DNA from: Leptotrichia sp. oral taxon 223
GTDB lineage: Bacteria > Fusobacteriota > Fusobacteriia > Fusobacteriales > Leptotrichiaceae
DNA length: 64,000 nt
NCBI RefSeq assembly: GCF_013394795.1
Contig: NZ_JABXYU010000001.1
Coordinates: 1,984,001 to 2,048,000 of the forward strand
Reading direction: 5' to 3'
Every line of letters begins with the position of its first letter. Position 1 is the first letter of the stretch. This document shows, in pieces, positions 3,143-63,328 of the stretch. The position numbers were made by a program, and so were the translations under genes. The notes under the pieces are model-generated. The model did not search any database. It worked only from the letters and a program-made list of their open reading frames with translations, and was not told the DNA's origin.

Positions 3143-3640
3143 ATGAACATTAGAAAGGCAAGAATAGAAGATTTGGATGAGATAACGGCAATAGAAGCGG
3201 TGTGTTTTCCAGCAAGTGAAGCTGCAACTAGGGAATCTTTTGAAGGCAGATTAGCTGTTTATCCTAATTATTTCTGGATCCTTGAAGAAGAAGGGAAAGA
3301 TGGAAATAAAAAAATTGTGAGTTTTGTAAATGGAATGGCGACAGATAGTCCAAATTTGTTAGATGAAATGTATGAAAATCCTAATTTACATAACGAAAAA
3401 GGAAATTGGCAAATGATTTTTGGAGTGAATACGCTCCCTGAATATAGAAAGAGAGGATATGCTGAAAAATTAATCAATGAGCTTATTTTTGAGTCAAAAA
3501 GTAAAGGCAGAAAAGGGGTAGTCTTAACTTGTAAAGATAAACTTGTTTCATATTATTCAAAATTTGGTTTTGAAAAAGAAGGAGTTTCAGAGTCTGTTCA
3601 CGGCGGTGCTGTCTGGTATGAAATGAGATTGAAATTTTAA
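3143..3640 (+). CDS. GNAT acetyltransferase, AANAT-like
   Basis: A complete 165-residue GNAT-fold protein. It opens with the typical NIRKARIEDLDEITAIE first strand and helix, carries the CFPASEAA motif seen in bacterial relatives of arylalkylamine N-acetyltransferase, and has the acetyl-CoA pyrophosphate loop as EYRKRGYAEKLI (R-x-x-G-x-A, about residues 101-112). The end SYYSKFGFEKEGVSES is the conserved motif B region. It probably acetylates a small amine with acetyl-CoA; the substrate cannot be told. It stands alone between the exported protein and a gene-free stretch and has its own probable promoter. Confidence 0.85.
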   Translation: MNIRKARIEDLDEITAIEAVCFPASEAATRESFEGRLAVYPNYFWILEEEGKDGNKKIVSFVNGMATDSPNLLDEMYENPNLHNEKGNWQMIFGVNTLPEYRKRGYAEKLINELIFESKSKGRKGVVLTCKDKLVSYYSKFGFEKEGVSESVHGGAVWYEMRLKF

Positions 3641-3699
3641 ATTTTTTAAAATGAAATAAAATTCTATAATAATTTAATTTAATAGTCTTGTTAAAAAAA

Positions 3700-3749
3700 T
3701 TAAATTTAATTCTTAAGTATCCATCTTAAAGACTTTTATAATTTTATTT
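3700..3749 (+). repeat. TTAAGTATCC-type intergenic repeat, copy 1
   Basis: TTAAATTTAAT..TTAAGTATCCA followed by GACTTTTATAATTTTATTT. The same two blocks recur at 63277-63328, and the first block recurs inverted at 4403-4434. With that inverted copy it brackets 3700-4434 like terminal repeats. Confidence 0.7.
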
Positions 3750-3760
3750 ATAAATATTAT

Positions 3761-3920
3761 GATTAATAATAATAGTTTTTCTATTTTTTTGTAACGTAAG
3801 GGCATCAGACGCCATGCCCTTACAACCCCGCTTTACGCAAAACTTTCTTATAAAGAAAAAATAAAACTCGCTTCGTAAAACTACGCTCAGACAGTTATTT
3901 TTCCTTTAACGAAATTTTGC
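3761..3920 (+). repeat. Palindromic intergenic repeat, copy A
   Basis: Bases 3793-3870 match the reverse complement of 15779-15856 with a single mismatch seen over 78 bases. The unit contains a perfect 10-bp stem, GTAAGGGCAT (3796-3805) and ATGCCCTTAC (3814-3823), with an 8-base loop. Weaker similarity extends on both sides, including a conserved block (CAGTTATTTTT..CTTTAACGAAATTTTGC) ending near 3920. It is a dispersed, structured, non-coding repeat in opposite orientation to copy B. Confidence 0.85.
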
Positions 3921-4402
3921 TCTTTAATATTTTCCAAATTTAAGAAATTAAATATATAATCTTTATAATTTAATATAGAATGTCGTGATTTTTTTGGAAT
4001 GAAAACGATTAAACACATTTATGTGTTTCTTTCGCCAAAACCTTTATAACAAATATATTTTAGAGAGTTGTTCTAATCTTTAATTTGCGAAAGTGAGCGT
4101 AAGCGAGTTTCGTTTTCGTAGTAATTCAGGTTTATCCAAACAATAAAGTTCAGACTACTTTCCCAAATAAAATTTGGGAATATTTCAAAAAAATGCTTAG
4201 ACGAGCCAGGGTTAGTGCACAGCACTTTCGCCATTATCTTTAATATGCCATTATTTAAAAATGTTAAAATAACTATTATTGCGAAATAAAGGGAAATGGC
4301 GATTGATTTCCCTTGCTTTATAAAAAGAAAAAACATAAAAACTATAGGAAAAATATTTATTAACAATAAGCAATTTCTCAAAATCTAAATAAAAATCCCT
4401 TA

Positions 4403-4434
4403 TATGGATACTTAATGATTAAATTTAATTAAAT
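4403..4434 (-). repeat. TTAAGTATCC-type intergenic repeat, copy 2 (inverted)
   Basis: Read on the minus strand this is TTTAATTAAATTTAATCATTAAGTATCCA without visible mismatch to 63275-63302, and close to copy 1 at 3700. It is the inverted partner that closes the 3700-4434 block. Confidence 0.7.
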
Positions 4435-4546
4435 GATAATTCAATAATTAATAGTATAATCTTGTAAAAAATGACTTTAATTTCATAAATTTTTTGATTT
4501 TCACTATTTAGACAGGAAATAGTATTAATAACATATCTTTTTAAAG

Positions 4547-4584
4547 AAAAAATGTAACTAACAATCAAGTTAATTACATTTTTT
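4547..4584 (-). terminator. Rho-independent terminator of the alcohol dehydrogenase gene
   Basis: AAAAAATGTAA (4547-4557) pairs with TTACATTTTTT (4574-4584), an 11-bp stem just beyond the stop codon at 4612. The A-rich left arm gives the U tract on the minus strand. The opposite arm would also serve plus-strand transcription. Confidence 0.75.
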
Positions 4585-4611
4585 TATTTATTTAGATGAA
4601 TTTAAATGAAA

Positions 4612-5655
4612 TTAGTGTTTGTGTCCACAACCACAAGAATGTGAGTGCATATCAATTACCATACGTCCTTGAATTGTTCCTTCTTCCATTTCCTTAAAGA
4701 TTTCTGGTGCTTCTTCAATAGTTCTAGTTTGAACTACAGGTACAACCAATCCTTCTGCTCCAAATTGGAATGCTTCCCTTAAGTCTTCTCTTGTTCCAAC
4801 AAGTGATCCGATTACTTCGATACCATCTAATACTGTTTTTACGATTGGCAAGTCCATAGTTTCTGATGGAAGTCCAACTGCGACAACTTTTCCAGCGGCT
4901 CTTACTGAATCAACAGCCTGGTTAAATGCAACTTTTGATACAGCAGTAACTACAGCAATATGAGCCCCAAGTCCGCTTAATTCCTTAATTTTTGCAACTG
5001 GATCTTCTTTTTTACCGTTTATAATATAATCTGCTCCAACTTCTTTTGCAAGTGTCAATTTGTCATCGTTTATGTCAACAGCGATTACGTGAGTATTAAA
5101 TACTTTTTTAGCATATTGAACTGCCAAGTTTCCTAATCCTCCAGCACCATAAATTACTACCCATTGTCCTGGTTGAGGTTTTCCAACTTTTATTGCTTTA
5201 TAAGTTGTAACTCCTGCGCAAGTGATACTGCTGGCTTGAGCTGGATCCAATCCTTCTGGAACTTTTACTGCATAATCAGCTGTAACGATACATTGTTCAG
5301 CCATTCCTCCATCGGCAGAATATCCTGCATTTATTACATCTCTACACAAAGTTTCCTGTCCATTGATACAGTATTCACATCTTCCACATCCTTCAAAGAA
5401 CCAAGCAATACTTACTCTATCTCCAGGCTTCAAAGATGTTACACCGTCTGCAACTTCTCTTACAATTCCAATTCCTTCATGTCCCAAAACTCTTCCAGGA
5501 ACTTTTCCAAAATCTCCATGAGCCACATGTAAATCAGTATGGCAAACACCGCAATATTCCACATCAACTAACGCTTCTCCCGCTTTTAACCCTCTTAATT
5601 TCTTTTCTACAACTTCTATTCCAGTTCCTTCTTTATTAACTACTACTGCTTTCAT
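4612..5655 (-). CDS. adhP: Zinc-dependent alcohol dehydrogenase (MDR family)
   Basis: A 347-residue medium-chain NAD(P)-dependent alcohol dehydrogenase. It would oxidise alcohols or, in a fermenter, reduce acetaldehyde to ethanol. Visible motifs are the catalytic zinc site CGVCHTD (C35) with GHE (H59-E60), the four structural-zinc cysteines C90, C93, C96 and C104, and the Rossmann loop GAGGLGNLA. The start has a good AGAAAGGAAAT ribosome site. Most unusual is the C-terminal tail, where the last ~11 residues are [11 protein letters not shown], a His/Cys-rich run absent from ordinary AdhP and likely to bind metal. A strong promoter and a palindromic operator-like site lie directly upstream. Similar to E. 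coli AdhP and Zymomonas AdhA class. Confidence 0.92.
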
Positions 5656-15513: not shown

Positions 15514-15629
15514 GCAGGATTGCTCATTGCCGCAAATCCTGCACCTATGGCTAGACTACGACTTTTATTTGCCCAACTCCGAAACTCCTCCTTTCAGTCG
15601 TCAGACAGTCGTAGTTGAACAAATAAAAG
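15514..15629. repeat. Structured intergenic block with crossing inverted repeats
   Basis: GCAGGATT (15514-15521) pairs with AATCCTGC (15535-15542). Next, CTACGAC (15556-15562) pairs with GTCGTAG (15608-15614), while TTTTATTTG (15563-15571) pairs with CAAATAAAA (15620-15628). The last two pairings cross, so they could form a pseudoknot or two alternative folds. No coding frame is seen. Confidence 0.5.
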
Positions 15630-15681
15630 CTCCGTCGAATTATTAAAACTAAAGAATTTTTTTAACTAAAATAAAAACGAA

Positions 15682-15897
15682 GCAAAATTTCGTTAAAGAA
15701 AAAATAACTGTTTGAGATTTTGAAATAAATTTTAAATTATATTTGACTATTTGTATTAAAATAACTTTGATTCAAAATCGAGTTTTATTTTTTCTTTATA
15801 AGAAAGTTTTGCGTAAAGCGGGGTTGTAAGGGCATGGCGTTTGATGCCCTTACGTTAAAAAAGAATAAGAATATAAAATAAAAAACTATTATTAATA
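15682..15897 (-). repeat. Palindromic intergenic repeat, copy B
   Basis: Inverted relative to copy A at 3761-3920. The 78-base core is 15779-15856, with the 10-bp stem at 15826-15835 and 15844-15853. A ~60-base insertion (15717-15778) separates the core from the AACGAAATTTTGC block, where copy A has only about 17 bases. The element is therefore modular. Confidence 0.85.
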
Positions 15898-23069: not shown

Positions 23070-23279
23070 TCATACTAGCCGGGGAGTTAGCGGTGCCCTG
23101 TATCTACAACCCGCTTTAGTAGAGGTGATGTCAAATTTAAGGGAAGTTCTAGTATCAACGTCTTATTTCAAAAGTGTTGAGAAAATAGTCCTGTATTGTA
23201 GAGAGTTAGCGAAATGTGTCAGGTTGGGAACGAAGCAGCACTAAGTTAGTTTCTCTAGGTTTACAGGGTAGCTGTTTTT
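23070..23279 (+). ncRNA. ffs: Signal recognition particle RNA, large bacterial type
   Basis: About 210 nucleotides. The 5' part AGCCGGGGAGTTAGCGGTGC and CCCTGTA matches the Alu domain of Bacillus/Clostridium-type SRP RNA, and CCCTGTA pairs with TACAGGG near 23262. The domain IV tip GTCAGGTTGGGAACGAAGC (23218-23236) has the GGAA tetraloop and the AGCAGC asymmetric loop that bind Ffh. It ends in a T run near 23274-23279. It guides ribosomes making membrane and secreted proteins to FtsY. Having an Alu domain, it is unlike the short 4.5S RNA of E. coli. Confidence 0.92.
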
Positions 23280-23484
23280 GAGCTTTTGGATTAAGAAACG
23301 GATGGTAGAATGTTTTCGAGAATTTGATGTATGACTTTTTATTTAATTAATTATAGTGTATTATCTTAAAATTGAAATTCCTTTTTCAAAAATTAAATTT
23401 ATTTAGTTTTGTTTTAAAAAGCTAAGAGTGGTTTAATAATTATTTTTTAGTTTAGTTTCTTTTACTACGAATGGAGGTTTCACG

Positions 23485-40145: not shown

Positions 40146-40174
40146 TTGACAAATAAGGTTATATATGATATAAA
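40146..40174 (+). promoter_or_regulatory. Promoter of the small RNA
   Basis: TTGACA (40146-40151), a 17-base spacer and TATAAA (40169-40174), one base from full consensus. The expected start is about 40181. Confidence 0.85.
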
Positions 40175-40180
40175 TAACTG

Positions 40181-40256
40181 TCTAATAGAGACGCCCCATC
40201 TCTACATTTAGACTTCTTTCATACAAAAAAACGAGCACACGGCTCGTTTTTGTTTT
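40181..40256 (+). ncRNA. Putative small RNA, ~75 nt, with C-rich loop
   Basis: No coding frame is seen, but three elements line up. There is a near-consensus promoter with predicted start at 40181. A hairpin begins right there: TCTAA-TAGAGA (40181-40191) pairs with TCTCTA (40199-40204) and TTAGA (40208-40212), with a 3-base bulge and an exposed CGCCCCA loop. A perfect Rho-independent terminator follows: ACGAGC (40231-40236) pairs with GCTCGT (40242-40247), then TTTTGTTTT. C-rich loops often bind the Shine-Dalgarno of target mRNAs. Trans-acting sRNAs are known in fusobacteria (for example FoxI), but no relation was tested. Confidence 0.72.
40226..40256 (+). terminator. Terminator of the small RNA
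   Basis: Stem ACGAGC/GCTCGT, loop ACACG, extended by A-T pairs on both sides and followed by a T-rich run. Confidence 0.9.
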
Positions 40257-40418: not shown

Positions 40419-41654
40419 ATGAAAAAAGAAATAGCGATAATTGGTGGCGGTGCATCGGGTTTTCTAACAGCGATTACTGCAAAGAAAAATGGTAAGGATG
40501 TTGTCATTCTGGAGAGAAAGGACAGAGTTTTGAAAAAGGTGCTGACTACTGGAAATGGGCGATGTAACTTGACAAATGTGAATGCTTCAAATAGAAATTA
40601 TTTTGGAATTGAGAAAATGAAGCAGCCGATTGAGAAAATTTTGGAAAGCTTTACTTCACAGGATGCAATGAATTTTTTTGAAGATGAAGTTGGGATAATT
40701 TGCGATGAAGAAAATAGTGGAAAAGTTTATCCACTTAGCGGACAGGCTGCATCAATTGTGGATGGACTCAGATTTTATGCACAAAGTCTTGGAATAGAGA
40801 TAATTACAGATTTTTATGTTACGAAAATTGAGAAGAAAATGTTTGATTTTAAGATAGTTTCTGAGGATAAAAGACAGATAGTTGCTAAAAAGGTGGTGCT
40901 TGCAACTGGTGGAAAATCATATCCTGAACTTGGTTCAAACGGAAGTGGCTATGAGCTAGCAAAGAGCTTTGGGCATACAGTTACGAAATTAACGCCTGTT
41001 ATTGTGCAGCTAAAGGCAGAAAAAGAAAAAATTAAGGGATTAAAAGGAATTAAGTTGGATGTGGAAGTTACGGCTTTTGGAGAAAATGGAAGTGGAGAGA
41101 AAATAAAGATTTGCACTTATGATGGAGAATTATTGTTTACGGATTTTGGGATTTCTGGAAATGTGGTTTTTAATATTTCGTATGTTTTTCCAATTTATAA
41201 AAATGTGGAATTTGAAATTGACTTTATGCCAAAATTTACGTACAATGAAATTTTTGAAATTCTGAAAAAACGTCGAAAAATATTAAAGGCTTTTACGATG
41301 GAACAATTTTTTAATGGAATTGTCAATAAAAAACTGGGACAATTTTTGACAAAATCGGCAGGAATAGAAAAGTTGTCAAAAAGTATAAATGAACTTACAG
41401 ACAATGAAATTCGTAAAATCTGTACAACTTTAAAAAAATACAAAATAAAAATTATTGATACAAATGGCTTTAAAGCGGCTCAAGTTACCGCTGGAGGTAT
41501 TCCTCTAAGTGAAGTGAATCTGGAAAATCTGGAATCAAAAAAAGTTAAAAATCTGTATTTCGCTGGAGAAATACTGGATGTTTACGGTGAATGTGGCGGA
41601 TTTAACTTACAATGGGCCTGGACATCTGGATATTTTTTAGGAAAAAATCTTTAA
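40419..41654 (+). CDS. HI0933-like flavoprotein (BaiN/YhiN family)
   Basis: A 411-residue FAD-binding protein. It has an N-terminal dinucleotide loop IIGGGASGFLTAI (residues 6-18), the family block TTGNGRCNLTNVN (about 45-57), VVLATGGKSYPELGSNGSGY and the C-terminal AGGIPLSEVN...YFAGEILDVYGECGGFNLQWAWTSG type ending. The family includes BaiN-like reductases; the physiological substrate is unknown. It is preceded by the small RNA and a hairpin. Confidence 0.92.
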   Translation: MKKEIAIIGGGASGFLTAITAKKNGKDVVILERKDRVLKKVLTTGNGRCNLTNVNASNRNYFGIEKMKQPIEKILESFTSQDAMNFFEDEVGIICDEENSGKVYPLSGQAASIVDGLRFYAQSLGIEIITDFYVTKIEKKMFDFKIVSEDKRQIVAKKVVLATGGKSYPELGSNGSGYELAKSFGHTVTKLTPVIVQLKAEKEKIKGLKGIKLDVEVTAFGENGSGEKIKICTYDGELLFTDFGISGNVVFNISYVFPIYKNVEFEIDFMPKFTYNEIFEILKKRRKILKAFTMEQFFNGIVNKKLGQFLTKSAGIEKLSKSINELTDNEIRKICTTLKKYKIKIIDTNGFKAAQVTAGGIPLSEVNLENLESKKVKNLYFAGEILDVYGECGGFNLQWAWTSGYFLGKNL

Positions 41655-63106: not shown

Positions 63107-63276
63107 AATTTTACCTCTTTTCCTAATATTGTTTTGCAATTTATATATTCTATTATATCATTTAAATCTTATAATTTATACTATTTCCTGTTTAAACAAT
63201 GAAAATCAAAAAATTAAACTCATTTTTTACAAGATCATGCTATTATATTTGCCTATTAACTATTAAAATGTCCTTT

Positions 63277-63328
63277 AATTAAATTTAATCATTAAGTATC
63301 CAACGTAAGGACTTTTATAATTTTATTT
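63277..63328 (+). repeat. TTAAGTATCC-type intergenic repeat, copy 3
   Basis: AATTAAATTTAATCATTAAG and TATCC, then GGACTTTTATAATTTTATTT. It combines the blocks of copy 1 (3700-3749) and of the inverted copy 2 (4403-4434). Confidence 0.7.

What the first reader, a model, noticed from the sequence alone, without database searches (positions are those of the whole stretch)
40146..40256. A probable undescribed small RNA with a C-rich loop
A near-consensus promoter, a hairpin that begins exactly at the predicted start with an exposed CGCCCCA loop, and a perfect Rho-independent terminator define a ~75-nt transcription unit with no coding frame. A C-rich loop is a typical seed for pairing with Shine-Dalgarno regions, so this looks like a trans-acting regulator.
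Basis: partly seen in the sequence, partly recalled or inferred. Interest (0 to 1): 0.6.

Follow-up and report, generated by a model that had tools for sequence, protein, structure and literature searches.

The report
Invariant small RNA gene of Leptotrichia
A roughly 75-nucleotide non-coding RNA gene with its own promoter and terminator is kept almost letter for letter across Leptotrichia and four neighbouring genera, while the DNA around it has drifted to random, so it is very probably a real, undescribed small RNA; what it regulates is still unknown.

Summary
A TTGACA-17-TATAAA promoter with an extended -10 (TG), a 5' hairpin with loop CGCCCCA beginning at the predicted start, a 13-nt unpaired linker and an intrinsic terminator define a 72-77-nt unit at 40180-40256 (fold z = -6.8; no start codon). 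All 13 genomes of the genus and 6 genomes of four related genera carry exactly one copy. The RNA is 96-100% identical to the window's in the 11 genomes measured, while flanking DNA is at the level of shuffled sequence. The -35, spacer length and TG are kept in all 19. The next-best covariance hit in 98 Fusobacteriota genomes is 15 orders of magnitude weaker. In three species it lies between other genes, and in two others different genes separate it from its usual neighbour, so it is an independent gene, not a leader. No Rfam family, viral copy or paper on it was found. A trans-acting base-pairing regulator is the best reading, by analogy with FoxJ of Fusobacterium, but no target could be shown: envelope-type genes are not enriched, and the two candidates followed (ilvN, lon) failed conservation checks. 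Hfq is absent. New member of a known kind.

The parts
40146..40174 (+). Promoter: -35 TTGACA 40146-40151, 17-nt spacer, extended TG 40166-40167, -10 TATAAA 40169-40174
   Evidence: Sequence; TTGACA, spacer 17 and TG in 19/19 genomes, TATAA[AC] in 18/19
40180..40256 (+). Small RNA gene, 72-77 nt, predicted start G40180
   Evidence: Fold z -6.84; 19 genomes at E <= 5e-18, next hit 0.01; 62 invariant columns
40180..40213 (+). 5' hairpin: GUCUAA/UUAGAC and AGAGA/UCUCU stems
   Evidence: 100% of cells paired; only A-U to G-U changes occur in the stems
40192..40198 (+). C-rich loop CGCCCCA, putative seed GCCCCAU
   Evidence: Invariant except first C to U in three genomes
40214..40226 (+). Unpaired linker UUCUUUCAUACAA, putative second contact region
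   Evidence: Invariant in all 19 genomes
40227..40251 (+). Intrinsic terminator AAAAACGAGC-ACACG-GCUCGUUUUU
   Evidence: Scan; stem kept in all sequences, T-run of 5-8
40419..41654 (+). Downstream neighbour: 411-aa FAD-dependent oxidoreductase-like protein; nearest downstream gene in most genomes, not part of the RNA gene
   Evidence: Within the region downstream in 16 of 19 genomes, absent beside the sRNA in 3; the name rests on the dinucleotide-binding motif and own knowledge, not on a family search

Best explanation
It is an independent small RNA gene transcribed by the housekeeping RNA polymerase from an extended -10 promoter and ended by its own terminator (inferred from conserved sequence). 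The 5' hairpin seals the 5' end and presents the GCCCCAU loop; the loop, perhaps with the unpaired UUCUUUCAUACAA linker, pairs with G-rich stretches of mRNAs, most simply at Shine-Dalgarno sites, and blocks ribosome binding or changes mRNA stability (inferred, by analogy with FoxJ and with C-rich seeds of low-GC bacteria). It would act without Hfq. Near-total invariance implies several targets or a bound protein besides. That the gene is a real small RNA I hold at about 0.95; the pairing mechanism at the confidence given.
For: One copy in each of 19 genomes from five genera and no good match in the other 79; RNA 96-100% identical against flanks at the shuffled background of about 0.50; promoter geometry fixed; terminator and stems kept with only pair-preserving changes; single-base indels before the terminator stem and no start codon argue against coding; location changes in three species and intervening genes in others argue against a cis leader; F. 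nucleatum sRNAs FoxI and FoxJ use cytosine stretches to repress mRNAs, FoxJ's in a hairpin loop (PMC11005410).
Against: No transcript data. No target conserved across genomes was shown: loop energies in G000 equal shuffled loops, long complementarity elsewhere in the genome equals shuffles, ilvN site not conserved, lon site behaves like a Shine-Dalgarno variant. Invariance of stems and terminator loop is more than base-pairing by the loop needs.
Confidence: 0.6

Rival explanations
1. A protein-binding RNA (decoy or scaffold, in the manner of 6S RNA): the hairpin as a whole is recognised by a protein and the loop does not search for mRNAs.
For: Stem, bulge, linker and terminator loop are all nearly invariant although compensatory changes would be allowed; no conserved mRNA target found.
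Against: No resemblance to a known RNA family; the C-rich loop and single-stranded linker fit pairing; many validated sRNAs are also highly conserved (own knowledge).
Confidence: 0.17
2. A cis-acting leader or attenuator of the downstream oxidoreductase gene.
For: The gene follows within a few hundred bases in most of the 19 genomes.
Against: In three species the RNA lies between a TetR-like gene and genes on the opposite strand; in two others different genes lie between. The terminator is followed by unconserved DNA, and the 5' hairpin and the terminator do not overlap, so no switch between them is evident.
Confidence: 0.06
3. A sponge or antisense partner of another small RNA.
For: Exposed C-rich loop could capture G-rich RNAs; short.
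Against: No site in G000 complements it better than shuffled controls.
Confidence: 0.1
4. A short coding gene or a relic of a mobile element.
For: One reading frame is open through the unit.
Against: No usable start codon or ribosome site, single-base indels before the terminator stem, no codon-position pattern; single copy per genome and no viral match.
Confidence: 0.03

Closest known systems
FoxJ and FoxI small RNAs of Fusobacterium nucleatum
   Same: Fusobacteriota; small RNAs with a cytosine stretch as seed; in FoxJ the stretch lies in a hairpin loop; act in bacteria without Hfq (PMC11005410)
   Different: FoxJ is about 156 nt, lies upstream of ylmH and has a sigma-E promoter; the RNA here is about 75 nt, has a housekeeping-type extended -10 promoter, another location, and no homologue outside one family by covariance search
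C-rich-seed small RNAs of low-GC Gram-positives (RsaE, FsrA, LhrC; from own knowledge)
   Same: C-rich single-stranded stretches that pair with Shine-Dalgarno regions
   Different: No match to an Rfam family; no target known here
STnc370 (Rfam RF02064)
   Same: Short RNA of 5' hairpin plus terminator; best sub-threshold Rfam match
   Different: 27.9 bits against a gathering score of 54, E = 0.075: chance-level

Membership tests
Bacterial intergenic small RNA gene (general class) | Own promoter, own intrinsic terminator, no coding frame | tested here: met
Bacterial intergenic small RNA gene (general class) | Conserved as RNA beyond flanking DNA | tested here: met
Bacterial intergenic small RNA gene (general class) | Detected transcript | not testable with these tools
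   No RNA data held
Trans-acting base-pairing small RNA | Encoded apart from its targets | tested here: inconclusive
   Location independent of neighbours in several genomes, but targets unknown
Trans-acting base-pairing small RNA | Conserved complementary site in an mRNA | tested here: inconclusive
   ilvN site not conserved; lon site partly conserved but G to A in G007; whole-genome scan at chance level
Hfq-dependent small RNA | Hfq in the genome | tested here: not met
   No match to PF17209 in 7 genomes; control genomes ring
FoxI/FoxJ sigma-E small RNAs | Homologous RNA in Fusobacterium and sigma-E promoter | tested here: not met
   No homologue outside five genera of one family; promoter is of TTGACA/TATAAA type; the FoxI and FoxJ sequences themselves were not aligned
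Any Rfam 15 family | Score above gathering threshold | tested here: not met

The most novel reading that the evidence does not exclude
A housekeeping-grade RNA of the Leptotrichia clade, invariant over its whole length because it is held by a protein as well as pairing with RNA: a core regulator in bacteria without Hfq.
Probability: 0.15. Interest if true: 0.7.

Novelty: new member of a known kind. Interest (0 to 1): 0.42.

Why it matters
Post-transcriptional control in Fusobacteriota is known almost only from Fusobacterium nucleatum; I found no paper describing a small RNA of Leptotrichia. A single-copy RNA kept at 96-100% identity across five genera, with a fixed promoter and an exposed C-rich loop, is a good first handle on RNA regulation in this lineage, which lacks Hfq. 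The strength of constraint on stems and linker, not only on the loop, asks for a partner that has not been identified.

Tried and rejected
Leader of the downstream gene: rejected by synteny. Coding: rejected. Rfam member: none. Phage-borne: no exact match to a 21-nt core in IMG/VR. CRISPR-related RNA (the string ATTTAGACT also occurs, from memory, in Cas13a repeats): no repeat ending GGGGACTAAAAC in the 94% of this genome read, and the string is common there. Target search: loop and linker duplex energies over about 2,300 predicted genes of G000, not better than shuffled loops; genome-wide complementarity at shuffled level; secreted-like genes not enriched; the ilvN site lies in the end of the upstream coding region and is lost in relatives; the lon leader TGAAAGGGG is kept in 9 of the 16 sRNA-bearing genomes in which lon was placed, plus AAAGGGG in G002, but is GAAAGGAG in G007, which fits a drifting Shine-Dalgarno site. 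Search for sibling C-loop RNAs in G000: none. A first pair count used a wrong register for the terminator and was replaced.

Full report
Reading the window: TTGACA at 40146-40151, a 17-base spacer, TG at 40166-40167, TATAAA at 40169-40174, five bases, then GUCUAAUAGAGA-CGCCCCA-UCUCUACAUUUAGAC (40180-40213), UUCUUUCAUACAA (40214-40226), and AAAAACGAGC-ACACG-GCUCGUUUUU (40227-40251). The folded unit has -22.7 kcal/mol against -7.7 for shuffles, z = -6.84. The terminator is one of two found by the scan in 2.5 kb, where 0.8 are expected by chance. There is no ATG or GTG and a single TTG in the tail.

Whether this is more than chance is settled by comparison. A DNA search of the 33 genomes of the family finds a match below 1e-26 in 19 of them: all 13 of the genus (named records found by a core pattern include Leptotrichia hongkongensis and Leptotrichia sp. 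oral taxon 879) and six from four other genera. A covariance model built from these 19 finds them at E 1e-20 to 5e-18 and nothing else better than 0.01 in 98 genomes of the phylum. A 15-base core pattern occurs exactly once in each of the 19.

Conservation follows the RNA and its promoter, not the region. Compared with the window, the RNA is 96-100% identical in the 11 genomes measured, while 100 bases upstream of the promoter and 100 bases downstream score 0.45-0.65, against 0.50 for shuffled sequence of the same make-up. The neighbouring oxidoreductase-like protein is only 65-69% identical between genera. TTGACA, spacer of 17 and TG are present in 19 of 19, and the -10 is TATAAA or TATAAC in 18. 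In the alignment 62 columns are invariant. All 19 modelled pairs are intact in every sequence; the few changes in stems are A-U to G-U, and there are no compensatory changes because there is almost no change at all. So conservation shows selection on the RNA; covariation can neither prove nor disprove the fold.

The gene is independent. In most genomes it lies upstream of the oxidoreductase gene, and in the four other genera downstream of an aminotransferase-like gene that I read as ilvE from its sequence. In G010, G012 and G013 it lies between a TetR-like gene and genes on the opposite strand, and in G021 and G022 other genes separate it from the usual neighbour. A cis-acting leader would not survive this.

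Function is inferred. The loop GCCCCAU is exposed and invariant apart from the first loop base. In F. nucleatum, FoxI and FoxJ use cytosine stretches as seeds to repress mRNAs, and FoxJ holds its stretch in a hairpin loop; the authors note that such stretches are frequent in bacterial sRNAs and may be a hallmark of low-GC genomes (PMC11005410). Like F. nucleatum, the genomes here have no recognisable Hfq. I therefore favour pairing with G-rich Shine-Dalgarno sites.

The target evidence is weak and I report it as such. About 94% of the window's genome was read. ilvN has a good site in this genome but not in relatives. lon has TATGAAAGGGG before its start here; TGAAAGGGG is kept at the same distance in G003, G005, G006, G010-G013 and G015 and AAAGGGG in G002, but G007 has GAAAGGAG and several others show no match. 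A Shine-Dalgarno role explains this as well as pairing does.

Against known families: no Rfam family reaches threshold, the nearest being STnc370 at E = 0.075. There is no exact match in viral contigs. I found no paper on it, in a library that lacks most subscription journals. I file it as a new member of a known kind, a conserved intergenic small RNA, with the mode of action open.

Noticed in passing
G000:C1:1943165-1944629 (minus strand; locus L194 about 3165-4629), outside the window: Tandem array of about five units of roughly 292 bp: TTGACAATTTTGTAAAATATGATATAAT promoter, about 80-nt RNA with hairpin AACCCTAAGGGT and terminator, then a second -10-like TTGTTATAAT, GGAGG and a 21-aa hydrophobic frame such as MNNDDIIRLLIILYIIYRITR. 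It looks like a type I toxin-antitoxin or small-peptide array; similar DNA in 11 of 13 genomes of the genus and two of another genus; no Rfam match.
   Followed up: partly
G000:C1:1959170 (+) and 1406457 (-), outside the window: Further promoter-hairpin-terminator RNAs, the first similar to the array's RNA and upstream of a GTPase gene that resembles typA.
   Followed up: no
window 3713-4008, 4289-4318, 15543-15816, 63271-63302: Members of repeat families present at least five times in the genome, including a hairpin-like AAGGGAAATGGCGATTGATTTCCCTTGC.
   Followed up: no
window 23070-23334: Large bacterial signal recognition particle RNA (RF01854, 145 bits).
   Followed up: no
G000:C4:218749-220209, outside the window: Dense run of repeated 28-mers, possibly a CRISPR array or other repeat.
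   Followed up: no
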